Below are positions 686 to 27,042 of a stretch of DNA of 37,639 nt, piece by piece. The first letter of the stretch is position 1, and each line of letters begins with the position of its first letter. The stretch comes from a virus. The notes beneath the pieces were generated by a model. The model saw nothing but the letters and a program-made list of their open reading frames with translations, was not told the origin of the DNA and did not search any database. The translations under genes and the position numbers were made by a program. The stretch lies in the IMG/VR virus record IMGVR_UViG_3300029923_000054, positions 1 through 37,639 of that record. One strand, 5' to 3'.

Positions 686-693
686 TGCTGCGC

Positions 694-1032
694 TCACATA
701 CAGGCGCGCGCGATCGAGCACGACTCAGCCGCCGCAACGCAAAACGGCACGAGCGAAGTCCCATCGGGACCGGTTTCGTTGTTGACGCACACCTGCGTGC
801 ACGTAGCGCCCGCCGCAGTCGGCTGCGCCTCTGGACAGCCAAGCGCGAGCAGCTTCGCGCACGCCTTGCCGCACGGCGAATCGTCGGGCGGGCTTGGTAC
901 GGGCGCCGCGTCGCTCGGGTTGTCCCATGGCGACGGCGGTTCGGGCTGAGGCGGCGGCTTCGGGAATGGGCCGAGCTGGCAGCCAAAGACGGCGACCACG
1001 AGCAGAGTCATCAGAATGAATATTTTTCGCAT
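694..1032 (-). CDS. Proline-rich, cysteine-rich small lipoprotein, candidate outer-membrane spanin
   Basis: The 112-residue product starts with a type II signal peptide (MRKIFILMTLLVVAVFGC, lipobox VFGC, Cys18). A Pro-rich stretch (about 22-48) follows, then a compact domain with eight cysteines (about 54-112). The start at 1032 has GAGG 6 nt upstream, and the longer reading to 1131 lacks a sensible signal. A Pro-rich lipoprotein beside a coiled-coil membrane protein is typical of o-spanin/i-spanin pairs. The Cys-rich tail is not usual for Rz1 and resembles Cys-rich modules of deltaproteobacterial and myxobacterial lipoproteins. It may instead be a lysogenic-conversion or surface protein. Confidence 0.7.
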   Translation of the reverse strand: MRKIFILMTLLVVAVFGCQLGPFPKPPPQPEPPSPWDNPSDAAPVPSPPDDSPCGKACAKLLALGCPEAQPTAAGATCTQVCVNNETGPDGTSLVPFCVAAAESCSIARACM

Positions 1033-5522: not shown

Positions 5523-5544
5523 TTAGATTGTGACTCCGTGGCGA

Positions 5545-6741
5545 TTAGGAAGAACGAAGCGAGAGCGCCACTTCAATATTTGAGCCGGTCTCGTGGGCGA
5601 CCATGAACCGGTTGTCACCGGCAAGTATCCGCTTCCAGCCGGCGGTCGCGACGCTGTGGTCACCGACCGACGGCCCCCGCGTCCAGCTTGCCCCCTTGTC
5701 CGTTGACCAGGCCAGCCCCCCGTAGTTGGCGGTCGTTGTGGGCATGATCCATAGCGAGTTGAGACAGGCCAGATCGTTGCCGACCGTGTACAGCGTACCA
5801 GTTGGAGCGACCCAGGTGAGGCCGTCCGACGACACCGCGCCGTTCCCTAGATTGGAGGCAACGGCCATCCAAAGTCCGTCCGTTGCGCTGTACGCCACGC
5901 CAGTCCAGAGACCCGCCGCCGGCAGCGTTCGCTCGGTCCAGTTGTTTCCGTCAGGACTCGTTAGGCACTTGTTGTAGCTAGAGACAGGCAGCGCAACGAA
6001 CAGCGAACCGTTCCACACTAGTCGTTTGCAGCCGCCCGAATTTGAGGTCCAGGTTGCGGGAAGCGTTGCGGCGCTCGACCATGCCGACATAGCTGCAGTC
6101 GTGTCGCCTGTGCTGAAAGCCTGGGTACCAACGAAAACCCAGAGATGCAGTGAGGGCGCGTAACATGGCACGTTTGCGCTCGTCCCAGCCGGCCCGCCAA
6201 CACGTAGGGTAGAGACAGAGCCGCTGACGATTGTGTAAAAATTCGCACCGACGCCACCGTTAGTCATGAGCGCTGGCACGCCATCGAGCATTCCTGCCGC
6301 CATCTCCGGTTTTGTCGTGGAGCAATTAGGGAGAGTCAGAATTGCGTTCCAGCTCAGCGCATCCGCGGACACGTACAGTGTTTTACTCGTGTTCAGAATG
6401 CCCCAAAGTGAACTCGAGGTACCTCCAGTTGTAGGTAGCCATGCGACAGCAAAATCCGAGTTTACTGCAGCTATCGAACCAGGGCCGATTCCACGCTCGG
6501 GCCAGTTAGTAGCAACCATTCGCGCAGAGAAGAACGAACTCATCGCACGGAATGGGGCGAGTACGTCCAGCCCATTCGCTCCGGAAATAGTGATCTTCGA
6601 CGATGGTATCCAAATCCCGCCCGCGTCGCCGTCGATTGAGGAGAACTGCGCCGCGTCTAAAGAATCATAGTCGGTACTGAGCACGGCCGAGCCGTTCGTC
6701 CATGCCGCAAGGCTCGGCCTGATTCTCGTTCGATGTGACAT
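5545..6741 (-). CDS. Beta-propeller-like tail protein
   Basis: The 398-residue product contains repeated blade-like motifs of the BNR/sialidase style: SPDGNNWTERTLPA, SSDGLTWVAPTG, STDKGASWTRGPS, with regularly spaced strands such as LWMAVAS and LWIMPT. These Ser-x-Asp-x-Gly-x-x-Trp motifs mark successive blades of a six- or seven-bladed propeller. Propellers in phage tails usually bind or cut surface glycans, but I see no clear sialidase Arg triad or Asp box set to claim hydrolysis. It lies just after the gp48-like baseplate gene (1-nt spacing) and before the fibres, so it is probably an adsorption-apparatus part. Confidence 0.65.
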   Translation of the reverse strand: MSHRTRIRPSLAAWTNGSAVLSTDYDSLDAAQFSSIDGDAGGIWIPSSKITISGANGLDVLAPFRAMSSFFSARMVATNWPERGIGPGSIAAVNSDFAVAWLPTTGGTSSSLWGILNTSKTLYVSADALSWNAILTLPNCSTTKPEMAAGMLDGVPALMTNGGVGANFYTIVSGSVSTLRVGGPAGTSANVPCYAPSLHLWVFVGTQAFSTGDTTAAMSAWSSAATLPATWTSNSGGCKRLVWNGSLFVALPVSSYNKCLTSPDGNNWTERTLPAAGLWTGVAYSATDGLWMAVASNLGNGAVSSDGLTWVAPTGTLYTVGNDLACLNSLWIMPTTTANYGGLAWSTDKGASWTRGPSVGDHSVATAGWKRILAGDNRFMVAHETGSNIEVALSLRSS

Positions 6742-6742
6742 T

Positions 6743-7702
6743 TTATAAGCTCACGTATGCGGTTGTGCCGATTGGCACGATGCCAACGCTCGGCTGTCCG
6801 ACTAAGATCGGGCCACAGATTCCGGGTGTAGTTTCGTGCACAACGTCCCACGTTGACGTCCCGCCGAGCATTCGCGAGAGCAGATCATTCACTCTCGCTC
6901 GCAAGGTCGGGTCGGTTGCCCTTCCGTTCTTCACGATTACGAGAGAGTTCTTCTTGAAGCTCGACCAGTTCGGAAACGAGCCTGTGAAGGCGAGCGCTCC
7001 CGCTTCATGCCCATTCGTAAACTGCGCTACCATCATGCCGATTTTCGCGCCTCCGGAAGTGCCCGCGGTCGGAGTGCCGAGCACCGTGATCGCCTCTTGA
7101 ATTCCGTTCAGCCCAGGATCGACGACTAGTGTCTCTTGGTCCTGAAGATCAGTGGAGTCGCCGTCGATGGGCAGATATCGCATGTAGATCGGGGCTGCTA
7201 CGCTCAAGACCGGATCTAGAAACTTGACCGTCTTGAAGCGCGCCGTCGGAGCTTTGCAAAGCGCAATCGGTATTGTATCCGGAGACGGATTGCATACCGG
7301 ATTCGGGGCCCAAGCCACGAAGTCAGAGCCGAGCAGTAAGCGCAATGCTTGCGTAACGTTCTGCTGCGACGGCTCAAGCGCAACCGCGTAGCGCGCCGAG
7401 AGCATGTCGCGCCGTGTGTTTGCGCTGTCGCTAGCGCCGGGTGCGAGGCCATACATGCCCTCCAGCACCGGCAATAGCTCATGCACCGTTTGCGGGTCCG
7501 CTTGGTTCTCGGAGCGCTCGAGAGTGTCGCGTGCCGCGCCGGCAGCCATCGCGATCGCGTACCACTCCGCGCAGATGGGCCCGCTGAAAGTGTCATCGAA
7601 GTTGCCGCCGTTTATCGAAACGAGCGACTGGTAGATCGACTGCGCTCGGGGCGTAGCGCTTGAAAACTCGAGCATTCCCCAGCCGGTAAACGCGGAAAGC
7701 AT
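6743..7702 (-). CDS. Baseplate protein, Mu gp48-like (DUF2313 style)
   Basis: The 319-residue product follows the gp47-type baseplate gene and a small gene and precedes the tail fibres, as gp48 does in Mu. Residues 65-110 (TVHELLPVLEGMYGLAP followed by a run beginning TRRDMLSARYAVAL) match the usual start of that family: a leucine-rich helix ending in GL, then an RR-containing helix. Mu gp48 is about 200 residues. Here the second half (about 165-319) is longer and beta-rich and may hold a fibre-docking domain. The start overlaps the upstream stop by one base (TGATG). Family assignment rests on this pattern and gene order. Confidence 0.6.
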   Translation of the reverse strand: MLSAFTGWGMLEFSSATPRAQSIYQSLVSINGGNFDDTFSGPICAEWYAIAMAAGAARDTLERSENQADPQTVHELLPVLEGMYGLAPGASDSANTRRDMLSARYAVALEPSQQNVTQALRLLLGSDFVAWAPNPVCNPSPDTIPIALCKAPTARFKTVKFLDPVLSVAAPIYMRYLPIDGDSTDLQDQETLVVDPGLNGIQEAITVLGTPTAGTSGGAKIGMMVAQFTNGHEAGALAFTGSFPNWSSFKKNSLVIVKNGRATDPTLRARVNDLLSRMLGGTSTWDVVHETTPGICGPILVGQPSVGIVPIGTTAYVSL

Positions 7703-8202
7703 CAGTTCACCTGAAAGACGAAAGGCGCATCGACACCCGTCGCGCCAAGTTTCGTTTTGATGCGCCAGCCGTTTACGAGTGGGAACACGCGCGCTCTATC
7801 GATCTCCACGTCGCCGACGATCGTTAGTCCGCTCGGTCGAGTGAGTTGCACCGGTATTAGCGTGAGTGGAATCGTGATCGACGTATCTCCGTTGCCATTG
7901 TCCGTCACGTTCCCGCCTAGAGCGGTGAAAGTCGAAGCGGATAGGGCAGTGCCCATCGCGACCAGTTGCGTGATAGACGGCACTCCGGCGACGAATTCGA
8001 CCTGAATCTTCAGGCTCGGAGCGATTCCGGCAAGCGCGACCACTTGCTTCATCGCCTGATTGAACATGCCGGCGCTTGGGTGCGCGGTCGGGTCTGGCGG
8101 GCGTACCGCGTCGTCCTGAAACGCGCCTCCGCCAAACTCCGCGATCGTTGGCCGATGCGGCAAGGCCTGATCGTAGGTGAGAACGCTGCTGAGTATTGTC
8201 AT
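7702..8202 (-). CDS. Stand-alone copy of the SGNH fibre's C-terminal domain
   Basis: This 166-residue protein aligns almost end to end with residues 457-616 of the SGNH fibre encoded at 2429-4279. Shared blocks include LSSVLTYDQ, IQVEF, TDNGNGDTS, DVEIDRARVFP and KTKLGATG. The two DNA stretches are also visibly similar, so this looks like a duplication rather than convergence. It overlaps the stop of the J-like baseplate gene by ATGA, so it is coupled to it. A structural role is likely, for instance a baseplate adaptor for the fibre. A chaperone or assembly domain is an alternative. Exact function unknown. Confidence 0.75.
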   Translation of the reverse strand: MTILSSVLTYDQALPHRPTIAEFGGGAFQDDAVRPPDPTAHPSAGMFNQAMKQVVALAGIAPSLKIQVEFVAGVPSITQLVAMGTALSASTFTALGGNVTDNGNGDTSITIPLTLIPVQLTRPSGLTIVGDVEIDRARVFPLVNGWRIKTKLGATGVDAPFVFQVN

Positions 8203-9704
8203 GGGAATACGGCAATCTCTAGGAGTGTGCGCTGGTATACCGTTATGCCTGGCGTCCCGACAGTGATCGGCGCCGTGCCTTCGACGACCGCTGCGCTCTG
8301 TACGCTGCGCAAACCGAGAATCGACATGACAGCGTTGTTTGTGACGCTATTCGGGTAGTTCTTCGGAGGCACCGGATTGCGCCGCTGCCTGCGGCCATCG
8401 CCCGAGAAGCTGGCGAACATTTCACCCGGGCCGAGGTTGTTGAAGTAGTCGAGCACCGGCTTCGCCAAATCGGCTAGCGAGTCCGACCACGGCATCGCGC
8501 GCGCGCCGACGGCCGGCGCGTATGTCGTATCGCTCCCGGTCAGCCCAACCGGATCCGCAGTGATCTCGTACGGGCCGGCACCGGTGACTCCGATGATCAG
8601 TTTCTTGCGAAACTTCAGCGCGACAGAGTCCCAAAACCCGATCGATTGCCCAATTTGCGGCGCGGAAATGCCGGTGTAGTCGCCGTTTTCTGTGCTGAGC
8701 TCGAATGCTATCGCGGCCGGGGAACCCGTCACTAGCATCGCGCCGGCTGTGCCGGCGGGTAGCCCGCGCGCCCTGTACGGAGGCCATGGCGAAGCGTCGA
8801 GCCATCCGGAAGAGCCTGGATCCCAGGCTAGTTGTAGGGTGAACGTCACCGGCAGTTTCACAACCTGCGCGCAGAAATAGGAATCATCTCCCGGCATTTG
8901 CCCGGTCAGCCATGCGAGCGCCGCGAGACGCTGCGACGTATTTGGCACGCGCAAATCCGGGCTAGCGTCGGCAGGTGTCGCGAGCAGGAACGCAAAGGCA
9001 TACGTCCCTGGCCCGAACACACAGGGGTAGGAAAAGACCGACGCGATCGCAAGGCCAGGTGTAGACCTGACCGCCGCCTGAATCGCGGCATCATTGTCCG
9101 CGTTGGGCGGGTTGCGGCGCGCCTCGCGTATGAGCGCGAGATAGGTCGCGTCGTCGGCAACGTCAGCGCCGCCAGTGAGACCGCCAGGGGCGACAGTAGC
9201 GGTCTGTCCGATGCCCTGACGCGGCGAGCTCCACTGCAGAGTAGTCCCCTCTGGAAGATTGGTTGCCGGGCCCGTGTCGAGCCCAATGATTCGGATCGGC
9301 GCGCCGTCAGCAAGCGTCTTTGACTCGATCGCCTCATAGCGTTTTTTTGTTAGCCGATTCTTGATTTCGTCGCGCAGCTGAACCGTGCCGCCGCTTGGAG
9401 CGGCAGAGACATAGACGTACCCGGATGCTCCTACGGCCTTCGGGCGAAACACCTTGTATCGCGCGCCGACACGATCGAGACGGTCGCCGGTTGCCGAATC
9501 CTCATTGATGCCGTTGGCAATCAGCACCGCGTCGGAGTAGATCGGGAGCAGAGTTATCGCGACGGTCTTGGCCAGGACGTCGGGCTGCGTGCCGTCGCTG
9601 GTGTCTGACTCCGGCGAAACGATGCCGTAGTCTCGGCGGAATTGGGTTTCGATCTCCCCACGGGTCGGGGTCTCGAGCGTGCCGGGTAGATCGTCGAGTG
9701 CCAT
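8199..9704 (-). CDS. Baseplate wedge protein J-like (Mu gp47 family)
   Basis: The 501-residue product begins with the usual signature of J-like proteins: a helix with QFRRDYGIVSP, a segment about leaving the cell of origin (QPDVLAKTVAITLLPIYSDAV), then a Gly-rich beta domain and RLDRVGARYKV. A second motif (ADDATYLALIREARRNPPNADNDAAI) matches the conserved central part where Mu gp47 and P2 gpJ have a YR.R...... helix and a variant of GT..D. Gene order (gp45-, gp46- and gp47-like) supports it. It is a wedge component connecting the tail hub to the fibres. The stop overlaps the next start by ATGA. Confidence 0.8.
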   Translation of the reverse strand: MALDDLPGTLETPTRGEIETQFRRDYGIVSPESDTSDGTQPDVLAKTVAITLLPIYSDAVLIANGINEDSATGDRLDRVGARYKVFRPKAVGASGYVYVSAAPSGGTVQLRDEIKNRLTKKRYEAIESKTLADGAPIRIIGLDTGPATNLPEGTTLQWSSPRQGIGQTATVAPGGLTGGADVADDATYLALIREARRNPPNADNDAAIQAAVRSTPGLAIASVFSYPCVFGPGTYAFAFLLATPADASPDLRVPNTSQRLAALAWLTGQMPGDDSYFCAQVVKLPVTFTLQLAWDPGSSGWLDASPWPPYRARGLPAGTAGAMLVTGSPAAIAFELSTENGDYTGISAPQIGQSIGFWDSVALKFRKKLIIGVTGAGPYEITADPVGLTGSDTTYAPAVGARAMPWSDSLADLAKPVLDYFNNLGPGEMFASFSGDGRRQRRNPVPPKNYPNSVTNNAVMSILGLRSVQSAAVVEGTAPITVGTPGITVYQRTLLEIAVFP

Positions 9705-9707
9705 GGT

Positions 9708-10166
9708 TCACTTCACTGTCGCGGTAAGGATGTTCAGCGGGTCGAGAGCCAGGTTTCGATAGTGCACAGCGACCCCGGTCTCGCCCTTCTTTGGGTCGGC
9801 AACTTGCACGCCTTCGAACGCGATCTTCCCTTCACTGATGAGCCGCGAGAATGGGAAAGCGTTCTGCGCTCGAATGTTCAAATCGTTTTGCTTCGCGACA
9901 CCGGTAAGTGGTGGGCCGTCAAACAGCGTGTGACCGACGCGCCTGTCGGCCTTGTGCGTGCCGCGCCGAATCGCGAAAGACCATTGTGCAGCCTGATCGA
10001 CCGGGTGCATTTCGGCGAACGTGCCATCCGCGTTTAGTTTGAAATTTCGAAGCTCGAGATCGAGATATGCCGCGGCCGGCGGATCGTTCGCCGACGGTGC
10101 AGAGGGCGCAGCTACCGGATCTTCGCCCGCCGGACCGTCGCCGGCCGCAAATTGTCCAGCTCCCAT
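9708..10166 (-). CDS. Baseplate wedge protein, Mu gp46 / gp25-W-like
   Basis: The 152-residue product has an extended Ala/Pro-rich N-terminus (1-32), then a compact domain beginning YLDLELRNFKLNADG. Central motifs (HPVDQAAQWSFAIRRGTH, then RVGHTLFDG) fit the small gp25-like lysozyme-fold wedge proteins that sit just upstream of the J-like protein in contractile tails. It starts 1 nt after the small Pro-rich gene and ends 3 nt before the J-like gene. No enzymatic activity is expected in this family. Assignment mainly by position, length and general pattern. Confidence 0.6.
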   Translation of the reverse strand: MGAGQFAAGDGPAGEDPVAAPSAPSANDPPAAAYLDLELRNFKLNADGTFAEMHPVDQAAQWSFAIRRGTHKADRRVGHTLFDGPPLTGVAKQNDLNIRAQNAFPFSRLISEGKIAFEGVQVADPKKGETGVAVHYRNLALDPLNILTATVK

Positions 10167-10167
10167 T

Positions 10168-10419
10168 TCATTCTTTCGGGCAAGGGATGGTGAGAGAATT
10201 TAGGAACGTCGTGATTTGGCTCATCACCTGATTGACGATCGCAATCACTCCCGGGTTGATCGTCAGCGGAGGCAACGGCGCTGCCGGTGTTGCCAGCGGG
10301 AACGGGAGCATCTTGCAGCACAGATCTGCGTTGAACGACGCCGACGGCTGCGGAGGAGTCAGCGATAGCCCGCCTGGCAGCGTCGGAAGCGGGACCTTTG
10401 GGAGTGGTGTGCATGCCAT
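10168..10419 (-). CDS. Small proline-rich baseplate-region protein, 83 aa
   Basis: The product is Pro-rich (PLPKVPLPTLPGGLSLTPP at the start) with a paired-Cys motif (DLCCKMLPF, about residues 33-41), a central PLPPL stretch, an amphipathic helix (VIAIVNQVMSQITTFLNSL) and a final IPCPKE. There is no signal peptide. It lies between the gp45-like spike and the gp46-like wedge gene and overlaps the spike stop by one base. Similar small Pro-rich proteins with a CC pair occur at this place in other Mu-like tails. Function unknown; tip or spike assembly is a guess from position. Confidence 0.65.
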   Translation of the reverse strand: MACTPLPKVPLPTLPGGLSLTPPQPSASFNADLCCKMLPFPLATPAAPLPPLTINPGVIAIVNQVMSQITTFLNSLTIPCPKE

Positions 10420-11252
10420 CAGGTCACAGATGATGAAGAGGCGGGGATCAGTGCTTCGAATGCAGTGAGCGACGAGGCCAGCGTCGTCACCGCAGTCGCA
10501 AGAGCGCCAGCGGCAGTAACGGCCGCCAGGTTTGCCGGCGTGAGCGCGCCAGCAATTGCAGTGACCGCAGTTGCCACAGCGGCGAAGCCTGTTGATATTG
10601 CAGCAAGCGCCGCGACAGTCGGATCGGCTTTTGCTACTGCGGACGCGACTCCCGCCGCCGTCCCGCCCGAAATAATGCTCGCCTCAGTCGAGGCCATGTT
10701 GCCGGTTAGTTTGATGTAACTGCTGAGCGCGCTGAACGGCACTGGAAGCCCGCCAATCGCGCCGAGGTCAATCGCGGCGCCTGAGCTGTGCAGCACATGA
10801 AAGCCGGTTGCGTCGAAGGTGATCTTTCCCCAGGGCGCGCTGAATAGCAGACCGTCGGGCTTGATTTGAAGCGCGACCGTTTTGCCGTTCGGCGTGTTGT
10901 CGTCGGTCGTGAAGAGCGAGATCCGACCATCCTTGTGAAAGCGAGCGAAGTTGCCGGAAGCGCCATGGACGAGCGTCTCGCCGCGCTTGAGCGACGGCAG
11001 CACGACTCGGCTCCGAGGGTCCGAGCAGAGCCAAGCGTGCGGCTCGTCGCCGTCGTAGCCGATCAGCGCCAGACAGCTGAATGCGCCATTCGCGTCAGGA
11101 TCCGGCGGATTCGCCATGAGCCCAAACGGGTGGTGCACCTCGACCGCCGGGACTCCGCTATTCTCCTCGCCGAAGCCGTCGTACTGGATGCCGATGAACC
11201 CGCTTGCGTCGACCTCGGAGTAGGTGATCGTGTGTAGGCGCCAATCAATCAT
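10419..11252 (-). CDS. Baseplate spike, Mu gp45 / gpV-like
   Basis: The 277-residue product has an N-terminal beta domain (1-110, with VEVHHPFGLMANPPDPDANG and PHAWLCSDPRSRVVLPSLKRGE, typical of the Mu gp45 OB fold). A short beta-helix-like stretch (about 110-165: DGRISLFTTDD, KITFDATGFHVLHSSGAAIDLG) follows. The C-terminal 85 residues are an Ala/Thr-rich helix-like low-complexity tail. Such spikes form the trimeric needle at the tail tip. It overlaps the hub gene stop by ATGA. The long Ala-rich tail is not part of the Mu protein and is odd; it could be a trimerising or anchoring segment. Confidence 0.75.
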   Translation of the reverse strand: MIDWRLHTITYSEVDASGFIGIQYDGFGEENSGVPAVEVHHPFGLMANPPDPDANGAFSCLALIGYDGDEPHAWLCSDPRSRVVLPSLKRGETLVHGASGNFARFHKDGRISLFTTDDNTPNGKTVALQIKPDGLLFSAPWGKITFDATGFHVLHSSGAAIDLGAIGGLPVPFSALSSYIKLTGNMASTEASIISGGTAAGVASAVAKADPTVAALAAISTGFAAVATAVTAIAGALTPANLAAVTAAGALATAVTTLASSLTAFEALIPASSSSVT

Positions 11253-12454
11253 GTTGGTTCAGATCCCGGGTCCGCGAAGATTAGATCTTGCGGTCGCATG
11301 AGGTGGACCGTGCTTTCGGTCTCGCGTAAGCGCGTGTGCGTGACGGCCTCGACGTAGAACAGCCCATGAATTCCGAGCTCGTCGTCGTCGACCTCGACCA
11401 TGGTGTCGGGCGTCCAGATTGCTCGTGCGTCTCCGCCACCAGTGAGTGACGGAGCGGAGTGCCCGGCCATCTTGTAGTTGAGCTGCCAGCCGTTTCGGTT
11501 TGCCTCGGCGATTTTGCGGCGCGCCATTGCTGCGGCCGCTTTCGGGTCGCGCGCCTTCGGGTCGTGGACCTGCAGCGTCTTAACGTCGTCGCCGCCGAGC
11601 AACGCGGCCATCTCCGCGTCAATCCACTCACCGTGATTTTTCGAGCGGCCGAAGTTGCGGCCTCCGCCGTGCCCGGCGACGATGCATTTCGTAAAACGCC
11701 GCCCGATGTTGTTTCGGAACTTGTGGCCGAGCACGTTGGCCGATTCGCTCTGACCACGCTTGCGGACAATGCGATAGACAGGCTCTTGGTTCGGGTTCGG
11801 CGCCGTGATCACGAAACCGCCGGAGCAGTCGGCCCACCAAAAAATGCCGCCGTGGTCGAATTGCGTCTTCAGGAACTCGCCCCAACGAGTGCCAAACTTG
11901 GCCGTTACGGTCTGGAATACGGTGCGCGTCGTGCCCGGTACTATCTGCTGCGGACCAGCGCTACCGTCCTCGAGCGTCGTTTCCTCGATCGTCGGAGCTG
12001 TCGCAACGATGGTTTTACCGACGTGCGACTTTCGGTTCGCGTTGTTGTCCGGGTGGATGAACGCATCGGGAAGACCAACCGCCTTGAGCGCAATCCTAAG
12101 CAGTTCTGTAAACGTAGTGTCCGCGGGAAAGCTCAGATCGGCCGAGACATACGCATCGTGAATGCGCGCCCCGAGGTCTCGCCCCTCGAAGTTAACCAAC
12201 GTTGCGCCGCCCGCGTCGCCAGTGTCGGGGCCGTCGGTGAACCCGTATTGAATCGGCGCCGCCCCAATATAAAGCTGAAATTGAGTGTTCGGCGGATACT
12301 TGGCGAGTAGCTCGCGCGTTACTGCGGCATTGCCGAGCCGAATCGCGAACGACGACGGCTGATTGAGAATGCCCTCACGGATCTCGTAGCTCTCGACGAT
12401 CGCGAGATCCTCGCCCCCCAGCACGAGGCGAACCGGGTCATAGTGGAGGGACAT
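11249..12454 (-). CDS. Baseplate hub protein, Mu gpP (gp44) / gpD-like
   Basis: The 401-residue product begins with a beta domain (SLHYDPVRLVLGGEDLAIVESYEIREG) and contains the family markers FAIRLGN, QLYIGAAPIQYGFTDGPD and VNFEGRDLGARIHDAYV. Together with the LNYKMAGHS block near residue 330 these match the gp27-like hub proteins of Mu and P2. Position between the N-like protein and the gp45 spike agrees. The hub forms a trimer that joins tail tube and spike. It is separated by 3 nt from the upstream gene and overlaps the next by ATGA. Confidence 0.8.
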   Translation of the reverse strand: MSLHYDPVRLVLGGEDLAIVESYEIREGILNQPSSFAIRLGNAAVTRELLAKYPPNTQFQLYIGAAPIQYGFTDGPDTGDAGGATLVNFEGRDLGARIHDAYVSADLSFPADTTFTELLRIALKAVGLPDAFIHPDNNANRKSHVGKTIVATAPTIEETTLEDGSAGPQQIVPGTTRTVFQTVTAKFGTRWGEFLKTQFDHGGIFWWADCSGGFVITAPNPNQEPVYRIVRKRGQSESANVLGHKFRNNIGRRFTKCIVAGHGGGRNFGRSKNHGEWIDAEMAALLGGDDVKTLQVHDPKARDPKAAAAMARRKIAEANRNGWQLNYKMAGHSAPSLTGGGDARAIWTPDTMVEVDDDELGIHGLFYVEAVTHTRLRETESTVHLMRPQDLIFADPGSEPT

Positions 12455-12457
12455 CGG

Positions 12458-13342
12458 CTAGAGCGCTTGGTAGATTTTGAGGATGGTTCCGCCGGGAATG
12501 GCGAAAGCATCGTCGATCGGATTCAGATTGAGGATCTCGCTCGCGCGCGTCGTATCGCCCTGGTAAACGAGCGCTGAAACGTCAATTACCGACATGGTGA
12601 CAGGCACTCGGAACTTGACGATCTTGCCGCCCGTGCGTTGCGTGTCTGTCAAGATCTCTTTTGCCGCGGCCCAAAGATCGCGCAGAGCATCCAAGATCCC
12701 GTGATTGGTTGCGTCCTGGAGCTCGATTCGCTGGTCGGCCTCCCTGCACAGCGCAACGAGCCCGAGGATTTTTGCTTCGAGCAAGCCGCCGTAGACGTTG
12801 CCCTGATCAACTATGGCCATCACATCATTGACGGCATTCAGCACGCTGTCGAAGATGCTTGGGTTCGGTAGTGTCTGGCTAAGATTGGTTAGCCGGCTCG
12901 CCTTGGTCGGCAGCGACTTCGGAGTGCTCACGAGATCATTGAGCAGGAACGAGTCGGAAGAGTCTTCGATAAACTTGAACGTCGCACGCTCACCCGAAAG
13001 GACTTTCGCCGTCATCTCCTGATCCCACTCGCGGCACATGCAGAACATGGGTCCGATCGATGGGATCATCAGATCCGCGGATGTCTCCTGCTCGAACAGC
13101 TCGCGGAGCTGCGCGAGTCGCTTCGGCCAAAGGTCGGGCCACTTGGCGAACGTGGTCTGAAAGTTCGAGACCATTTCGATCTCGTAGGGACGGCGCCCGA
13201 GTTTCTCGAGCGCGGCCGATGGCGAGTGCGAATACTCGTGCAGATGGTCCCGAACACCGCCGCGCACGCGCACGAGCTCGACCGGAAACTCGAGCCCCTG
13301 GAATGCCGCCCGGGGCAGGAGGATCAGATCGTTGACAGCCAT
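12458..13342 (-). CDS. DNA circularisation protein-like tail protein, Mu gpN
   Basis: The chosen start at 13342 (MAVNDLILLPRAAFQG) gives 294 residues. A longer reading to 13405 would add an Arg-rich lead not expected here. The first 140 residues have the N-family pattern: RAAFQGLEFPVELV, HEYSHSPSAALEKLGRRPYE and MVSNFQTTF. The rest is helical, ending in a short domain with ILNPID-like and GTILKIYQAL stretches. In Mu, gpN is a tail protein between the tape measure and the hub. Upstream lies the divergent gap that also serves the plus-strand lipoprotein gene, so this gene may start a new transcript. Confidence 0.75.
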   Translation of the reverse strand: MAVNDLILLPRAAFQGLEFPVELVRVRGGVRDHLHEYSHSPSAALEKLGRRPYEIEMVSNFQTTFAKWPDLWPKRLAQLRELFEQETSADLMIPSIGPMFCMCREWDQEMTAKVLSGERATFKFIEDSSDSFLLNDLVSTPKSLPTKASRLTNLSQTLPNPSIFDSVLNAVNDVMAIVDQGNVYGGLLEAKILGLVALCREADQRIELQDATNHGILDALRDLWAAAKEILTDTQRTGGKIVKFRVPVTMSVIDVSALVYQGDTTRASEILNLNPIDDAFAIPGGTILKIYQAL

Positions 13343-13414
13343 GGAATTGTCGGGATTTCTGCCGAATTCGGCCCGCCGCCTTGACGCGGGGCGCCGGCGA
13401 CGCACTGTGATCTG
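13343..13414. promoter_or_regulatory. Divergent intergenic region with possible plus-strand promoter
   Basis: This 72-nt gap separates the leftward N-like gene from the rightward lipoprotein gene. On the plus strand TTGACG (13381-13386) is a good -35, followed at about 17-18 nt by a poor -10 (around 13404-13410). If used, transcription would start almost at the ATG at 13415, that is, a leaderless or very short-leader message. This agrees with the lack of a ribosome site there. An imperfect inverted repeat (GAATT..CGG / CCGAATTC, 13344-13369) lies at the left. Weak evidence. Confidence 0.3.
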
Positions 13415-14200
13415 ATGAGGACTGGTGTCTGGGCGCTGTGCGCGTGCTTGGTGTGGGTCGTCGGGTGCGACGGGGGCGGGGTTGCCCTCGCGCCGCCGGA
13501 TGCCGAGGCGGGCGCAGCAGGAGCGCCCTACGTGCCGCCGGTCGGAGGCCAGTCAGGGGAGCAGGCGGTGAGCGGAGCTGGAGGCGCGCCGGTCGCCGTC
13601 GCTGGCGCCGGCCAGGGCGACGCCGGTTCGCGACCGACCGGCGGAACGTCTGCTGGCTCGGGAGGCGATCCGGTTGCGAGTGGCGGCGGCGGAGCCGGAG
13701 GCATCGGCAGCGCATCGGGTAGCGGTAGCGCTGGCGCCGCGTCCACGTGCTTCGATGGTGACCCGCAGACCTACGGAACTTGCACCTACCACCTGCGCAG
13801 CTGTACGGGGACCACGGCGATCGACTACGTGACGACCGACGGGGCAACCTTTACGTGTCCGACGATTAGTAACTGCACCTCCGCAGTGATAGCGCTGCAA
13901 GAGCACTGCACGGCAGGCGCCGGAGGATCGGGCGGGACTACCGGTGGAATCAGTGGCTCGGGTGGCGCGCCGGTCGATGATCCCGCATGCGGCGGAGCCG
14001 ATCAGTACAGCAACCCAGACAAAGGGCTTTGCTGCCCGGCGCTGCTTGCGAAATACCTCGCCGGTCCGTGTTGGCCGCAATCGCTGCCATGGCAGTCATG
14101 CGCGGCCGCTTGCCTACCTGGTAAGAATGTGGCTTGCCCGACCAACGGCCCGCCCCTGTGCGTCTGGGATACCGTCGAGCAGTGCAACAAATGCGGCTGA
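13415..14200 (+). CDS. Cysteine-rich surface lipoprotein, moron-like
   Basis: This 261-residue protein runs against the surrounding genes. It starts with a lipoprotein signal (MRTGVWALCACLVWVVGC, lipobox VVGC, Cys18). An 80-residue Gly/Ala/Ser-rich linker (25-110) follows, then a Cys-rich module (112-166), a second Gly-rich linker (168-186) and a second Cys-rich module (191-261, ending CNKCG). The layout is typical of myxobacterial surface lipoproteins and points to a Myxococcota host. It lies between the tape-measure and N-like genes, a place where phage morons are found. A role in surface masking, exclusion or host fitness is possible; none can be shown. No ribosome site is visible before the ATG. 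Confidence 0.75.
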   Translation: MRTGVWALCACLVWVVGCDGGGVALAPPDAEAGAAGAPYVPPVGGQSGEQAVSGAGGAPVAVAGAGQGDAGSRPTGGTSAGSGGDPVASGGGGAGGIGSASGSGSAGAASTCFDGDPQTYGTCTYHLRSCTGTTAIDYVTTDGATFTCPTISNCTSAVIALQEHCTAGAGGSGGTTGGISGSGGAPVDDPACGGADQYSNPDKGLCCPALLAKYLAGPCWPQSLPWQSCAAACLPGKNVACPTNGPPLCVWDTVEQCNKCG

Positions 14201-14454
14201 CCCCTCCGCCACGCCTTCCCCCGATCGACCCGCTCGAGTCCGAGCTCCAAGAAATGTCGATCGCGATCGATCGCGGCTTTCCGCATTTCCCGCCGCCACC
14301 TCCGCCGCCGGTCGATCGGCATTCGCTCGCGCGCGTTGCGCCGTCCGCTCTCATGCATCGCGAAGAGACGATCGACTGGATTAGGCTTCTCGCGCGCATT
14401 CTCCTATGCACCGTGCTCGCGCTCCTGCTTTTCGCGGCCTGGAGCCTGTATTGA
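14191..14454 (+). CDS. Small membrane protein with C-terminal anchor, coupled to the lipoprotein
   Basis: The ATG at 14191 lies inside the end of the lipoprotein gene (10-nt overlap). The 87-residue product is Pro-rich at first (RLTPPPRLPP and a run of seven prolines near residue 37) and ends in one hydrophobic segment (about 65-86, LLARILLCTVLALLLFAAW) followed by only Ser-Leu-Tyr. This is a tail-anchored or C-in topology. A longer reading from 14134 is possible but lacks a ribosome site, and the overlap favours translational coupling. Together with the lipoprotein it makes a two-gene plus-strand unit spanning both membranes. Function unknown. Confidence 0.6.
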   Translation: MRLTPPPRLPPIDPLESELQEMSIAIDRGFPHFPPPPPPPVDRHSLARVAPSALMHREETIDWIRLLARILLCTVLALLLFAAWSLY

Positions 14455-14465
14455 CGAACTCAAGT

Positions 14466-14505
14466 ATCTCGATCCGTTGAACTCAGTTTTTTTGGAATTT
14501 TCCAA
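14466..14505. repeat. Copy B of the 40-nt dispersed direct repeat
   Basis: It matches positions 1-40 at 31 of 40 bases in the same orientation. It fills the gap between the convergent plus-strand membrane gene (ends 14454) and the tape-measure stop codon (14506-14508), ending exactly at that stop. The core is AACTCAGTT here and AACTGAGTT in copy A, a palindrome differing only at the central base. An A/T-rich half palindrome (TTGGAA/TTCCAA) borders it. No standard terminator is formed on either strand. Confidence 0.6.
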
Positions 14506-16773
14506 CTACTGACCACCGGCAACGGGCGCCTTCGGCGGCTCAGGAGGCGGGAAGTTGCCGACGATCACCTTTAGACCACCGCTATTCATTTGCTGTAGCA
14601 GCGTGTTCATTTTGACAAGCTCAGCCTTGAGCGCAGCCGTCTCCTTCGAGTCCGCTCGACTGCTGTTGTCTCGGTCCTGTCCGAAGTCGGCGCCCATCGG
14701 ATCGGCGGCAATCGCTACGTCGTTGGTAGAAGCTTCGTCGATTTGCTTCTTGACGTGAGCGGCTGCCTTTTCGAGATCTGCCTTTCCCTGCGCGGTGAAT
14801 TCGTGCTTGCGCGCGTGGTTGGTAGCGTTCGCCAGCGCGGCGCCGTCGTTTCCGGTTTGCGTGCCCTCGGCGTTGGCCTCCGCATCTTTTGACTTGAAAA
14901 AGTGCGCGATCGCAACCTCGCCCGCTTGTTCGATTGCGTACGCGAGCGCACCGATCACAGCGGCCGAAGTGAACAGGCCGAGAAGTCCGCCAGCTTGCCC
15001 GACGAGTCCGCCGCCCTTACCAGGAAGCGCCGACGTGCCGGCGACGTTCTTGATTATTGTCTCGATGCCGTTGCGGAACGCAGACTCGATGCCAGCGCGT
15101 AGAATCACGACGCCGATCGCGTCGATGATCGCCGTTCCCGGGTTCGATGCCGCCCACGCTGCAAGGTCTCCAAGATGACCAGCTAGCTTCAGCGCCGGTT
15201 CTTCGAGTTGCTCGAGCACCGGCAAAAGCTTTGCCATCACTCCGTGCGTGATGTTCTCCAGTTTTTGGTTGAAGCGCTCTGCTTTTGATTCCGTTGTTTT
15301 GAGCGCCTCAGCGAGTGCGCGCGAAACCTCAGTCGTTGAAATGTTGGCGTGGCTGAACTTCGCCAACTCGGCGTTCATCGCGTCGAGGCCCTTCTGGCCG
15401 CCGCCAGCCTCATTGAACGTCATTTGAAGGCCGGTGATCGCCTTCATTGATCGAGCGTCGCCAACCGCAGACTGCACGCGGTCCAGGCTCGAGAGCCCTG
15501 ACTTGCCAGTCTTCTTATCCCTGCTACCGGCCACGATGAGCGCTTTTGCGAGCTTGAGCGGGTCACTCAAAAGCGAATGCTGGTCGTCTGCAAACTGTCC
15601 GTTCTTGTTCCCGAGCAATGCAGCAATCGACTTGAGCCGCGCCGGCTTCTTGAGCGTGTTTGCGAGGCTATCGATCGCACCGAAGGCCATGGCCGGAGTC
15701 GAGGCGCCGCCGTGCATCTTCGCGATCTCGGCTAGCGCAGTAAGCTTGCCAATGTTCTCGGCCTTGTCGCCCTTGAACATCGCCGCCGGTGCCGCTGCTT
15801 TCGCCGTGTACTTGGCGAAGTCCGAGAAGTCCACGCCTCCGATCTTGCCTTGCCCGCCGGCAACGCGCAGCAGGTCAAGCACGGCCTTCTCTTTGTTCGG
15901 CACATCGCCGATATGCGCCGCGAATTCCGCCGCAGACTTTGCCGCGTCCTCCTGATTCACGCCGAACGCCTTCGACTGGGCGATTACGCCCGGCATGATT
16001 TTTCGCCAGAGGTCCAGATCGCCAGTCAGACCAACGAAGGCGTGCCCCGCGGAGATGATGTCTACCGGGTTGATCGCGAAGTCCTTGCCCGCCTTCCGCG
16101 CCTCGCCCTGCAGCGTGTCGGACGCGACGACCTGACCGTTGCCACCCTTTGCCCCCTCGATAAAGCCGCGGTTAGAGAGCGCTGTTGCGCCCTTTTCAAT
16201 GTCTACACCGCGCCGAACCAAGCCATCGATCGATGTCTCGACGCCCATGCCGCGCAGCACTTCGGAGCCCGCACGCCGCGCCATGCTCATGATCGGCATG
16301 TTCGGCATGAAAAACCGCGTCGCTCGGTGAGACGTGCGGTCGGCAAACTTGTTGATCGCGCTCTGACTTGCCGCGGCCGCGCTTCTCTTGTCCTTCTCGA
16401 GCTGCCGAGCCGCCTGGAGCTCGAGCCGATTGTTCGCGTTCAAAATTCGAATGCGCTCTCGCCCGGCTTCGTTTGCCAGACGGATCGCGGTCGAATACTC
16501 GCGTTTGCTTTCCTGCTCAGCTGCCCGCGCTCTCTGCTTCGCTTGATTCGCGAGCTGGCGCGACATGTCTTCGCCGGCCCGAGTCGTGTCGGCGAATACC
16601 TTCCGAGCGGCCTTGCCGCCGTCGGCGAAGCTTCCCTTCATGCCGACGGAGAGCGATGCAAATTCCTTCTGAACTTGCTTTCGCGCTTCGATCGCAGCCT
16701 GAACGAGCGGCTTGAAAACCGTTCGCATCGACTGGTCGACGGCCGCGCCGATCTTGATCTTGATTTCCGCCAT
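14506..16773 (-). CDS. Tail tape measure protein
   Basis: The 755-residue protein is the longest in the window. It is mostly helical: a charged coiled-coil region (about 20-145) is followed by a Gly/Ala-rich central part with phrases common in tape measures (GVDIEKGATALSNRG, AFGAIDSLANTLKKP). A hydrophobic segment follows at roughly 540-640 (AIIDAIGVVILRAGIES, GLLGLFTSAAVIGALAYAIE), then a charged tail ending in a Pro-rich PPPEPPKAPVAGG. Tape measures set tail length and are ejected with the DNA, and the hydrophobic part may enter the host membrane. Its length would predict a short to medium tail, on the order of 110 nm by the usual 1.5 Å per residue. It ends at the 40-nt repeat. Confidence 0.85.
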   Translation of the reverse strand: MAEIKIKIGAAVDQSMRTVFKPLVQAAIEARKQVQKEFASLSVGMKGSFADGGKAARKVFADTTRAGEDMSRQLANQAKQRARAAEQESKREYSTAIRLANEAGRERIRILNANNRLELQAARQLEKDKRSAAAASQSAINKFADRTSHRATRFFMPNMPIMSMARRAGSEVLRGMGVETSIDGLVRRGVDIEKGATALSNRGFIEGAKGGNGQVVASDTLQGEARKAGKDFAINPVDIISAGHAFVGLTGDLDLWRKIMPGVIAQSKAFGVNQEDAAKSAAEFAAHIGDVPNKEKAVLDLLRVAGGQGKIGGVDFSDFAKYTAKAAAPAAMFKGDKAENIGKLTALAEIAKMHGGASTPAMAFGAIDSLANTLKKPARLKSIAALLGNKNGQFADDQHSLLSDPLKLAKALIVAGSRDKKTGKSGLSSLDRVQSAVGDARSMKAITGLQMTFNEAGGGQKGLDAMNAELAKFSHANISTTEVSRALAEALKTTESKAERFNQKLENITHGVMAKLLPVLEQLEEPALKLAGHLGDLAAWAASNPGTAIIDAIGVVILRAGIESAFRNGIETIIKNVAGTSALPGKGGGLVGQAGGLLGLFTSAAVIGALAYAIEQAGEVAIAHFFKSKDAEANAEGTQTGNDGAALANATNHARKHEFTAQGKADLEKAAAHVKKQIDEASTNDVAIAADPMGADFGQDRDNSSRADSKETAALKAELVKMNTLLQQMNSGGLKVIVGNFPPPEPPKAPVAGGQ

Positions 16774-16780
16774 TTTGGGC

Positions 16781-17080
16781 TCACGGACTCGTGAAGCCCG
16801 AAGCCTCCACGCGGAATTTCAACTCGTCGACCGCGACCAGTGAGCCGCTACCCACCCAACGCGCAAGCCATTCGCCACGCACGCCGAGCGTTACGTCGAA
16901 GTAATACATGCCAGCCGATGCGCGAATCACCTGCGCGCCGGCCAGCGTGTAGACCGTTTCAGTGCCGCTCGGATCTCGTAGCTTGAGAGCGACGGTCGTC
17001 GGATCTGATACCGCGCCGGCAATCAGATCCGTGAACGTCACGCTGAAGCGCGCGCGCTGTCCAAACTTGAATGTCTGCAT
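16781..17080 (-). CDS. Small beta-rich (Ig-like) protein, 99 aa
   Basis: The short product looks like one Ig/fibronectin-like beta sandwich: alternating strands such as QRARFSVTFTDL, TTVALKLRDPSG, MYYFDVTLGVRGEWLARWVGSG and VDELKFRVEA. There is no signal peptide. It starts directly after the stop of the 731-residue repeat protein with no gap and ends 7 nt before the tape measure. Beta-sandwich proteins of this size are common decoration parts of capsids, tails or fibres. The role here is not known; coexpression with the repeat protein suggests they work together. Confidence 0.6.
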   Translation of the reverse strand: MQTFKFGQRARFSVTFTDLIAGAVSDPTTVALKLRDPSGTETVYTLAGAQVIRASAGMYYFDVTLGVRGEWLARWVGSGSLVAVDELKFRVEASGFTSP

Positions 17081-19276
17081 TTATTCGCACGCGGTGACAG
17101 CGGTTGACGCGGAAGCGGTCGGGGCGATTGTGCTGGCCGCGCTTGCCAGAGCGGTGATTGAGCTGTGCGCGCAGCCGACCGACGACGACGGAGGCGGAGG
17201 GGCGACGCCGAAGAATGCGGCGAAGCTTCGAACCCGACGCCAGAGCGAATCAAGAAACGTCTGCTCGGCTGGCGATGAGTCCTCAGCGATCGGCCTAGCG
17301 CGCGCCGTCGGCGGAGGATCGACCCGCCAGAAGAACGCCGACCACGGCTTGCGTTGCAGTGTCTCGGGGAAATGCTCGTCCGAGATCGGTCGCGCTCGAG
17401 TCGTCGGCGGAGGGACCGGCGGAGGGGGCGACGTGGGGAACCACGGGCGCCGCTGCGTCGGTTGCTCTGCTGGAGACTCCTCGGTTTGCGGTCGAATTCG
17501 GATTGGCAGCTGAGCCGCGACGGCAACCGGGAGCGGAACCAGTCCGCTTCGCCGCTGTAGTGGCTCGTCCGCCTGATCGTCGGAGATTGGCCGAGCACGC
17601 GTTACCGAGGGAGCGTCGACCCGGGCAAAGTCCGGAGCCCACGGCTTGCGCTGGAGTGGTTCCGGAGATTGCTCGTCCGAGATGGGGCGAGCGCGAAGAA
17701 CCGGCGGAGCGCTCGGCACGAGCCCGCTGGTCGGCAGCCATGGGCGGCGTACTAGCGTTTCGGGTGATTGCTCGTCGCTGATTGCTCGATCCCGCGTTAT
17801 CGGCGGGTTCGACGGGACTACCCCGCTCGTCGGGATGCTAATGCGGCGCTGCAGATCGTCCTGCGTCGCATTTTCTTCGAGCGGTCGAGCGCGAGTGACA
17901 GGTGGCGCGTCGGTGGCGCGGAGGGGCGCCGGGCCTTCGCGTTCCTGAATCGTGTCGGGCGCCGTAGGCTCGTCCGCGATCGCGCGCCGTGCGGCGAACG
18001 GAAAGGCGACGGGCGCCGCCGCCTGTGTTGCAGGCGGCAACGGCCGCAGCCGGATCGGCTCGTCGGCAATCGGCTCGTCGGCGAGACGCGGCTCGCGCTC
18101 GGCTGGTGGCCCCGCTTGCGGCGCAAGGGTTACCAGTGGCGAACGGAGCTGGATCCGTTCGTCGGCTGGCGAGTCGTCCACGAGCGGCTTTCGCGCTCGG
18201 AACGGTGTCGCGGTAACCGGCGGAGCTCCCGTTGGGAACGCTCGGCGAGTGATGCGCTCGTCGAGCGGAGCCGCGTCGAGGTCTGTCGTGTCGTACGCTA
18301 CGAGCGGAGGCGAATCGGGTGGCGGAAACGCCGCCTCTGCGCCGCTACGCAGTGGCAAATCGGGTGCCAGTGCCTCGTCGATCACGGCCCGCGCGCGTAG
18401 CTTCGGCGGAGCACTCGGCACAAGCCCGCTCACTGGCCGCCATGGCCGCCGAATCAGTGTCTCGGGCGATTGCTCGTCGAGAACCTGTCGCGCGCGTAGC
18501 TTCGGCGGAGCGCTCGGCGCGATTCCGCTTACCGGGATCCACGGCTTGCGTTGCGGAGCGTCGACGAACTGCTCGTCGAGCATTGCGCGTCGACGCGCGG
18601 GGGGATTGGCGGCGCCGCCCCCTGCGCCTGTCTGCGCGAAGATCGCGATCGATATGTGCGGCGCGGTCGTACCCGTGAACGTCGCGTCGATCGGCGACGT
18701 CGTAGTGACCTGGATGTGCTCGAAGCGAGCGCTCGTGCCGCCTTGGTCGATGTCCCAGCCTGCGCCGTCGTCGGTAAACCCTGCGCCCGCGGTGGCCGCG
18801 TTGGTTGCGGGGTTCGTGTCCATCGACACGCCGAATAGCCATCCGGTGCCCGCGGGGGTGAGCTGCGTCGAGCTGAGTGCTGTGGCGCCGCTCTGGAGCT
18901 GGCTAGCGAACTGGAGCGCGCTAACTGGGTCCGGGCACTCCCAGACAGCCATCCCACGAAAGCCTGCCGCAACCGACCATGTCACCGCCGGCAAAATGCT
19001 GACAGCCGTCACGCCGGTGAGAATCGCGAAGACCTCGACCTGCTGCTGGTTGCCTGTGTCCTGCCGGGTGTGCCGAACGGCGCCATAGCTGCCATTCGTT
19101 GGATCCGTGGCGCTCGCGGTGCCGCCGCTCGTCGTGTCGTTGGTGCAGGCGATAACGATAGCGGCGCCGGCTGCAGGCGTGAACGCGACGAGCGTTCCGT
19201 GCGTCGCTTGAGACGGCAAGGTCGTGATCGACGACGCGCCCGCGCTGACCTGACCACGGAAAATCGGGGTCGTCAC
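17081..19276 (-). CDS. Large protein with jelly-roll-like head and 14 proline-rich repeats
   Basis: The 731-residue protein has three parts. Residues 1-225 look like a beta-sandwich (strands such as GTLVAFTPAAGAAIVIAC and APHISIAIFAQTGAGGG). Residues 227-692 are about 14 tandem units of 32-34 residues. The best units read ARPISDEQSPETLQRKPW, then a stretch such as PTSGLVPSAPP. The last 38 residues are Pro then Ser/Thr/Ala rich with two Cys. There is no signal peptide or membrane segment. It overlaps the stop of the upstream gene by 4 nt and abuts the next. Its place between chaperones and tape measure suggests a virion protein, possibly an adhesive filament. I do not recognise a family. Confidence 0.75.
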   Translation of the reverse strand: MTTPIFRGQVSAGASSITTLPSQATHGTLVAFTPAAGAAIVIACTNDTTSGGTASATDPTNGSYGAVRHTRQDTGNQQQVEVFAILTGVTAVSILPAVTWSVAAGFRGMAVWECPDPVSALQFASQLQSGATALSSTQLTPAGTGWLFGVSMDTNPATNAATAGAGFTDDGAGWDIDQGGTSARFEHIQVTTTSPIDATFTGTTAPHISIAIFAQTGAGGGAANPPARRRAMLDEQFVDAPQRKPWIPVSGIAPSAPPKLRARQVLDEQSPETLIRRPWRPVSGLVPSAPPKLRARAVIDEALAPDLPLRSGAEAAFPPPDSPPLVAYDTTDLDAAPLDERITRRAFPTGAPPVTATPFRARKPLVDDSPADERIQLRSPLVTLAPQAGPPAEREPRLADEPIADEPIRLRPLPPATQAAAPVAFPFAARRAIADEPTAPDTIQEREGPAPLRATDAPPVTRARPLEENATQDDLQRRISIPTSGVVPSNPPITRDRAISDEQSPETLVRRPWLPTSGLVPSAPPVLRARPISDEQSPEPLQRKPWAPDFARVDAPSVTRARPISDDQADEPLQRRSGLVPLPVAVAAQLPIRIRPQTEESPAEQPTQRRPWFPTSPPPPVPPPTTRARPISDEHFPETLQRKPWSAFFWRVDPPPTARARPIAEDSSPAEQTFLDSLWRRVRSFAAFFGVAPPPPSSSVGCAHSSITALASAASTIAPTASASTAVTACE
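17201..18598 (-). repeat. Tandem array of about 14 diverged ~100-nt coding repeats
   Basis: The repeat region inside the 731-residue gene has a period of about 96-102 bases, read in frame. In the leftward sense each unit encodes a basic (R/T)AR start, a (P/A)(I/V)xDE centre, a (Q/R)RxPW stretch and a Pro-rich end. Units at the two ends of the array and in the middle (RARPISDEQSPETL type) are closest to each other; others have drifted. This is a gene-internal expansion, not a CRISPR: the units are all coding and have no constant spacer structure. Confidence 0.8.
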
Positions 19277-19497
19277 GGCAGCAGGATCCCGTCGACGTGA
19301 TGCAACTCCTCATGGCCGTCGGCGAATCGAACGCGCCAGACGTACGGGTTTTCAGTCGCCCCGATCACCGTGGCGGAATGATTGCCATGCCCGTGCCCCT
19401 CACGGTAACAACGAAGCTTGACGATCAGCCCGTCATGCCCTGCCTGCAGCTTGGCGATCGTGGATGCGCGCGCGGCGTCTAGGGCTGGTGATTTCAT
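19273..19497 (-). CDS. Small His-rich protein, SH3/Tudor-like pattern, 74 aa
   Basis: The product has a short helix, then a small beta domain: GLIVKLRCYREGHGHGN, SATVIGA, VWRVRFADGHEELHHVDGILLP. The VxFxDGxxExxxxD pattern recalls SH3-like or Tudor barrels, and seven or eight His residues might bind a metal. It overlaps the upstream lectin-like gene (19494-19497) and the downstream repeat gene (19273-19276), each by 4 nt, so the three are translated in a chain. Function unknown. Confidence 0.6.
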   Translation of the reverse strand: MKSPALDAARASTIAKLQAGHDGLIVKLRCYREGHGHGNHSATVIGATENPYVWRVRFADGHEELHHVDGILLP

Positions 19498-20213
19498 GGC
19501 AGTTTATTTCCGCTCCACGAGGTGAGGCAGTAGTCCGAGCTCGCCAGATAGTTGCCGAAACCGATCGAGCCGGTAGCGAAATAGGTAGCGGCCAGTGTCG
19601 TCACGTCGAAGTTGTTCACGTATTGCGTGCGTGTGGACGCATGCGTGAGCCACACCGACACCAGGCTGCCGATGATTTGAGCTTCGAAGAAATCCCCGTC
19701 GGCAATCGCGAACCCGACGCTCCCGAAATTCTGCATTTGGAAATCGCCGAGGACTGTCCCGCGCGCGCCCGAGGTGACTCCGCCGACGTTGATTACCTCC
19801 AGATATCCGCCGTCGAAATTCAAGTTGATCTCGTACGCCGTCATGAAGTGCGGGCCGAATGTCGCGCGCAGTAGCAGCTCGCACTCAACGGATCCCGATA
19901 GCCCGTTTGCGCTCCGATGAATGACGGCGGAGGCGTATTGGTTAGGTCCAATATTGAATTTTGCCGGGTCTAAAATGACAACCGAATCATCAAAGTTGGG
20001 TGATGAAGTACTTTGCTTCGGTACGGCGAACCCGCCCGACACAGCAAAATCCGTCCAATCCAATGCCGTGACTCCGCCCGATAGCCATATGCCACCCTCG
20101 GATAGAGTGCCTTCGGGAGTGCTGAGCGTCGTGGAATACGACGTGGGAAGCACAACCGGAGCAGCCGGCGCCGGCTTGCCCGACCGCGCCATTCGCATTC
20201 GACAACCGGGCAA
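19494..20213 (-). CDS. Lectin-like (jelly-roll) structural protein, TTG start likely
   Basis: The 239-residue product has a short Pro/Ala-rich head and then a long beta-rich domain (about 30-239) with concanavalin-like strands: VECELLLRATFG, TAYEINLNFDGGYLEVINVGG, FEAQIIGSLVSVWL and SIGFGNYLASSDY at the end. Such domains commonly bind glycans. The TTG at 20213 is preceded at 7 nt by GAGAGGG, the best ribosome site; ATG codons at 20198 and 20192 in the same frame are alternatives and lack one. It is the first gene after a GC-rich hairpin. Probably a virion adhesin; the exact role is unknown. Confidence 0.65.
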   Translation of the reverse strand: MPGCRMRMARSGKPAPAAPVVLPTSYSTTLSTPEGTLSEGGIWLSGGVTALDWTDFAVSGGFAVPKQSTSSPNFDDSVVILDPAKFNIGPNQYASAVIHRSANGLSGSVECELLLRATFGPHFMTAYEINLNFDGGYLEVINVGGVTSGARGTVLGDFQMQNFGSVGFAIADGDFFEAQIIGSLVSVWLTHASTRTQYVNNFDVTTLAATYFATGSIGFGNYLASSDYCLTSWSGNKLP

Positions 20214-27022: not shown

Positions 27023-27042
27023 CGCTTTACCTTGTCAGTTAG

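What the first reader, a model, noticed from the sequence alone, without database searches (positions are those of the whole stretch)
13415..14454. Two plus-strand genes form a moron-like cassette inside the tail operon
A Cys-rich lipoprotein with Gly-rich linkers and a small tail-anchored membrane protein lie against the direction of all neighbours. They sit between tape measure and N-like genes and overlap by 10 nt. Such cassettes often alter the infected host's surface. The pair could mask a receptor or exclude other phages.
Basis: partly seen in the sequence, partly recalled or inferred. Interest (0 to 1): 0.7.

Follow-up and report, generated by a model that had tools for sequence, protein, structure and literature searches.

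The report
Reverse-strand envelope gene pair in phage
Inside the tail genes of an uncultivated phage sit two backward-facing genes that probably make a lipid-anchored surface protein and a small inner-membrane protein; they look like a known kind of phage accessory cassette that alters or protects the host cell, but their families are new and their job is untested.

Summary
A 261-aa lipoprotein ORF (13415-14200, +) and an 87-aa C-terminally membrane-anchored ORF (14191-14454, +; 10-nt overlap) sit between a tape-measure-like gene (14506-16773, -) and an N-like gene (12458-13342, -; phrog_184, DNA_circ_N). From 4281 to 20213 the minus-strand genes are packed with gaps of -4 to +22 nt, except for this one 1163-nt break. 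The lipobox and the C-terminal TM are each unique among 240 ORFs in the window, and a second contig of the same phage carries the pair with one base change. Neither protein matches PHROGs, Pfam, NCBIfam, PADLOC, PDB or phage records, or any other viral contig. Best reading: a moron-like accessory cassette that remodels the host envelope, most likely for superinfection exclusion (lipoprotein outside, small protein in the inner membrane). That function is inferred from topology and context. Own promoter, own terminator, foreign codon usage, an empty site in relatives, temperate lifestyle and a myxobacterial host could not be shown. Spanin and SitA-like toxin roles are disfavoured. New member of a known kind; modest interest.

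The parts
13415..14200 (+). Lipoprotein gene, 261 aa: signal peptide with lipobox (Cys18), ~90-residue Gly-rich linker, six-Cys domain (aa 109-167), short Gly linker, second Cys-rich domain (aa 190-261)
   Evidence: domain 1 alone folds at pLDDT 80
14191..14454 (+). Small tail-anchored membrane protein, 87 aa, Pro-rich N-terminal part predicted cytoplasmic, TM at residues 66-84
   Evidence: codon score 0.37 bits/codon
13343..13414 (.). 72-nt divergent intergenic stretch between the N-like start and the lipoprotein start; the promoter of the pair would have to lie here. A TTGACG at 13381-13386 is present but no acceptable -10 at 16-18 nt
14455..14505 (.). 51-nt convergent intergenic stretch with a T7 run; no terminator-like hairpin before the T run on the + strand
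14506..16773 (-). Tape-measure-like flanking gene, 755 aa (by position and length; no family hit)
12458..13342 (-). N-like (Mu gp43-like, baseplate hub/DNA_circ_N) flanking gene
   Evidence: phrog_184 E 6.7e-14, PF07157 E 1.1e-4

Best explanation
The pair is a moron-like accessory cassette, lying against the late transcript between the tape-measure-like and N-like genes, that makes two cell-envelope proteins rather than virion parts. The lipoprotein would be exported, lipidated at Cys18 and carried on a ~90-residue flexible Gly-rich tether that presents two disulphide-rich domains at or outside the outer membrane. The coupled 87-aa protein would insert by its C-terminal helix into the inner membrane with the Pro-rich part in the cytoplasm. 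The likeliest benefit is superinfection exclusion or a related surface change in an infected or lysogenic cell: the lipoprotein interferes with adsorption or tail passage, the small protein with DNA entry. Shown here: both ORFs, their topology signals, the overlap, the orientation and the unique break in the operon. Inferred: expression, localisation and the exclusion function.
For: Opposite strand within a 1163-nt break, where all other gaps from 4281 to 20213 are -4 to +22 nt, apart from none larger. Lipobox and C-terminal TM each unique among 240 ORFs. 10-nt overlap suggests translational coupling. Pair preserved in a second contig of the same phage, 1 difference in 1424 bases. Known precedents from papers: loci antisense to lytic genes are characteristic of morons (PMC7067206); Ltp of TP-J34 is a prophage-expressed lipoprotein that stops DNA injection (PMC3952083); HK97 gp15 is a predicted inner-membrane exclusion protein (PMC10883804).
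Against: No E. coli-type promoter or terminator of its own. GC3 equals the phage's; the raised GC comes from Gly/Ala codon positions 1-2. No match to any known exclusion, defence or phage family. No relative with an empty site. No evidence for lysogeny. Asp at +2 would retain the lipoprotein in the inner membrane by the E. coli rule.
Confidence: 0.42

Rival explanations
1. Host-directed lysogenic-conversion cassette without exclusion function: a host-type lipoprotein captured by the phage that changes adhesion, extracellular matrix or cell contact of the carrier cell.
For: Architecture (lipobox, long Gly-rich linker, Cys domains) looks like a secreted bacterial lipoprotein. Ala at +7 after Cys18 and no Lys at +2 would, in Myxococcus xanthus, mean extracellular matrix sorting (PMC3222651).
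Against: No chromosomal relative found, though that scan reaches only close relatives; host unknown, so the Myxococcus rule may not apply; Ala is frequent in this protein.
Confidence: 0.25
2. Structural or host-contact virion proteins that happen to be transcribed from the other strand.
For: Location next to tape-measure-like and baseplate genes.
Against: Opposite strand from the late transcript; export and lipidation signals; Cys content unlike the other tail genes (0-2% apart from an 83-aa ORF).
Confidence: 0.06
3. A second lysis or spanin-like pair bridging the two membranes.
For: Lipoprotein plus small membrane protein in overlapping genes, the same general make-up as the candidate spanin pair at 374-1032.
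Against: The small protein ends three residues after its TM and has no periplasmic domain; a better candidate pair (TM plus coiled coil, Pro-rich lipoprotein) already lies beside the lytic peptidase.
Confidence: 0.07
4. Lipoprotein toxin and membrane immunity pair of the SitA kind.
For: SitA lipoproteins occur on prophage-like elements with a downstream immunity gene (PMC5562445).
Against: SitA families have a ~375-aa escort domain and C-terminal nucleases (PMC8546572); this protein is 261 aa in all and has no nuclease match.
Confidence: 0.05
5. One or both ORFs are not genes, and the break is non-coding or the antisense frames are used.
For: Long ORFs are cheap at this GC (5.3% of shuffles); one antisense frame scores as well on codon usage.
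Against: Unique lipobox and C-terminal TM; the antisense frame is Arg-rich and overlaps the N-like gene.
Confidence: 0.05

Closest known systems
Phage morons lying antisense to lytic genes (for example STMMW_20121 of prophage ST64B, PMC7067206)
   Same: Small accessory locus on the strand opposite the late genes, dispensable-looking break in an operon
   Different: Those have transcripts from their own promoter; none could be shown here, and no sequence relation was tested
Ltp superinfection-exclusion lipoprotein of Streptococcus phage TP-J34 (PMC3952083)
   Same: Phage-coded lipoprotein anchored outside the cytoplasmic membrane
   Different: Ltp is 142 aa, lies in the lysogeny module of a phage of Gram-positive hosts, has repeat domains; no Pfam or PHROGs match links the two
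HK97 gp15 exclusion moron (cited in PMC10883804)
   Same: Predicted inner-membrane phage protein coded by a moron
   Different: No family match of the 87-aa protein; partner lipoprotein not described for gp15
SitA lipoprotein toxins of myxobacteria (PMC5562445, PMC8546572)
   Same: Lipoprotein with a following partner gene on prophage-like elements
   Different: No ~375-aa escort domain, no nuclease domain, much shorter, Cys-rich

Membership tests
Phage moron | Extra gene(s) between late genes that do not belong to the operon | tested here: met
   Opposite strand; only break of 1163 nt among gaps of -4 to +22 nt from 4281 to 20213
Phage moron | Own promoter | tested here: inconclusive
   No sigma-70 type match at 12900-15000; the host's promoters are unknown; a lone TTGACG at 13381
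Phage moron | Own terminator | tested here: inconclusive
   No + strand terminator-like site directly behind 14454; RNA fold z-score -0.20
Phage moron | Composition differs from flanks | tested here: inconclusive
   GC 66.5% in the break but GC3 same as phage genes; excess comes from the Gly/Ala linker
Phage moron | Absent at the same site in related phages | tested here: inconclusive
   No relative contig covers the junction
Phage moron | Expressed in the lysogen, dispensable for growth | not testable with these tools
   Needs RNA and a cultured phage
Bacterial lipoprotein | Signal peptide with lipobox and +1 Cys | tested here: met
   LVWVVG|C18, unique among 240 ORFs
Known superinfection-exclusion, defence and phage families (Pfam, PHROGs, PADLOC, NCBIfam models) | Profile match | tested here: not met
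   No match for either protein above cut-off
SitA lipoprotein toxins | ~375-aa escort domain plus C-terminal nuclease | tested here: not met
   Whole protein is 261 aa; no Pfam nuclease; definition from PMC8546572
Spanin pair | Inner-membrane partner with N-terminal TM and a periplasmic domain | tested here: not met
   TM at residues 66-84 of 87, nothing beyond it

The most novel reading that the evidence does not exclude
A two-tier exclusion unit of a new kind: one overlapping operon codes a surface- or matrix-exposed Cys-domain lipoprotein on a long tether and a tail-anchored inner-membrane protein, blocking incoming phages at both membranes, with no relation to known exclusion families.
Probability: 0.15. 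Interest if true: 0.6.

Novelty: new member of a known kind. Interest (0 to 1): 0.33.

Why it matters
If the exclusion reading holds, it adds two unrelated protein families to the small set of phage-coded surface modifiers, in a phage lineage with no cultured relative, and marks the tape-measure/N junction as a place where accessory genes are accepted against the late transcript. If the host is a myxobacterium it would bear on how phages change the surface of social bacteria. As it stands the evidence supports an ordinary moron-like cassette made of orphan proteins.

Tried and rejected
Homologue searches in viral contigs with the lipoprotein, its first Cys domain, the small protein, and the N-like, tape-measure-like and J proteins returned only the same phage or nothing. 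Genome contigs with the lipoprotein and with a capsid alignment: no relative, so no bacterial genome could serve as a centre for wider search. tblastn: no match for either protein in phages or for the lipoprotein in plasmids. AlphaFold2 on both Cys domains together was poor (pLDDT 47); domain 1 alone was fair (80), but fold searches gave no significant match (Foldseek best E 0.59 in PDB, 0.19 in BFVD; VIA-align best Z 4.4). Repeats around the break: only Gly-codon repeats and chance matches, no flanking repeats that would mark a transposition-like insertion. No Rfam RNA. Antisense ORFs inside the break were considered: the 175-aa ORF (13553-14080) lies in a frame that scores about 0.01 bits/codon; the Arg-rich 285-aa ORF (12990-13847) lies in a frame that scores 0.22 but overlaps the N-like gene.

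Full report
Context. The window is a 37,639-base linear IMG/VR virus record. It holds the head, tail and lysis genes of a contractile-tailed phage on the minus strand: terminase large subunit 33165-34829, portal 30759-32207, head protease-type protein 29595-30704, major head protein 27928-29031, sheath ending at 23085, tape-measure-like 14506-16773, N-like 12458-13342, hub 11249-12454, baseplate J 8199-9704 and a papain-like peptidase 1041-1763. Cultured phages are only remotely similar: capsid about 25% identity, terminase 28-32%; the hub has no tblastn match in phages. Four IMG/VR contigs are the same phage at >99.9%; three more share the head genes at 71-73% nucleotide identity and three are more distant.

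Check of the observation. The lipoprotein reads MRTGVWALCACLVWVVG|C..., then about 90 residues of Gly/Ala/Ser-rich linker, a six-Cys domain, a short Gly linker and a second Cys-rich domain. The second ORF starts 10 nt before the first ends and codes a Pro-rich 87-aa protein ending in LLARILLCTVLALLLFAAWSLY. Open frames by themselves mean little at this GC: 5.3% of Markov shuffles give one of >=261 aa. The features do mean something. Among 240 ORFs of >=60 aa the first-start lipobox is unique and shuffles show one in 0.2%; the C-terminal TM and the highest hydrophobicity peak belong to the second ORF alone. Codon preference fits the phage (0.20 and 0.37 bits per codon), though for the first gene one antisense frame scores 0.22, so the lipobox, the Cys content and the overlap carry the case there.

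The break in the operon. From 4281 to 20213 the minus genes follow each other with gaps of -4 to +22 nt; the one exception is 1163 nt between the N-like start and the tape-measure-like stop, and the pair fills it. The N-like start is placed at the ATG at 13342 because the PHROGs match begins just after it (residue 30 of the longer reading). A second contig of the same phage carries the region with one difference in 1424 aligned bases, at 14410 in the TM of the small protein (Thr74 to Ala). No promoter of E. coli type and no terminator behind the pair were found. The raised GC of the break comes from codon positions 1 and 2 of the Gly/Ala linker (0.84/0.79), while GC3 is that of the phage. The layout looks like an insertion, but recent foreign origin is not shown.

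What it is. Neither protein has a family match in PHROGs, Pfam, NCBIfam or PADLOC, or a significant PDB match; the weak PRIMA1 hit of the small protein is far below its cut-off and reflects a Pro-rich part plus a TM. tblastn found nothing for either protein in phages or for the lipoprotein in plasmids. The first Cys domain alone folds in AlphaFold2 without an alignment at pLDDT 80, a small sheet followed by a helix, with no significant structural neighbour; the weak hits are unrelated to each other and are not interpreted.

How it most likely works. Export and lipidation signals on the first protein and a tail anchor on the second make both envelope proteins, and the opposite orientation keeps them out of the late transcript. 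Phage-coded envelope proteins of this general sort are known to exclude other phages: Ltp is a lipoprotein transcribed in the prophage state that stops DNA injection (PMC3952083), and HK97 gp15 is a predicted inner-membrane exclusion protein (PMC10883804). Moron loci antisense to lytic genes are recognised in transcriptomes (PMC7067206). I take a surface or entry modification, most likely superinfection exclusion, as the best reading. Where the lipoprotein ends up depends on the host: by the E. coli rule Asp +2 would keep it in the inner membrane; by the Myxococcus rules absence of Lys +2 and presence of Ala +7 would send it to the extracellular matrix (PMC3222651).

Rivals. A host-conversion lipoprotein without exclusion function cannot be separated from the best reading by sequence. 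A spanin role is unlikely: the small protein has no periplasmic part, and a better candidate pair lies beside the lytic peptidase at 374-721 and 694-1032. A SitA-like toxin fails on length and domains. A virion role is unlikely given strand and export signals. Spurious ORFs are unlikely given the unique features.

Verdict. It is a new member of a known kind, made of orphan proteins, of modest interest.

Noticed in passing
window 374-721 and 694-1032 (-): Candidate spanin-like pair beside the lytic peptidase: a Pro-rich, Cys-rich 112-aa lipoprotein (MRKIFILMTLLVVAVFGC...) overlapping by 28 nt or so a 115-aa TM plus coiled-coil protein. The lipoprotein has no match in phages or plasmids.
   Followed up: partly
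window 1041-1763 (-): The peptidase in the lysis region is papain-like (PF00112, E 2.3e-7), an unusual type for an endolysin position; its role was not tested.
   Followed up: no
window 2429-4279 (-) and 7702-8202 (-): The C-terminal ~160 aa of the 616-aa GDSL-lipase-type protein is 55% identical to the 166-aa protein at 7702-8202, a duplicated domain within the tail-fibre region.
   Followed up: no
window 27042-27117 (-): A tRNA-Met(CAT) gene lies between head-tail genes.
   Followed up: no
window 35809-37053 (-): A 414-aa protein with repeated CxxCxGxG-type zinc-finger motifs as in DnaJ, next to the terminase genes (motif seen by eye).
   Followed up: no
L009 4858-11864 against window 19-27 kb: The relative that shares the head genes at 72-73% identity has an unrelated tail module (different sheath and tape measure), a mosaic boundary just after the capsid gene.
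   Followed up: partly
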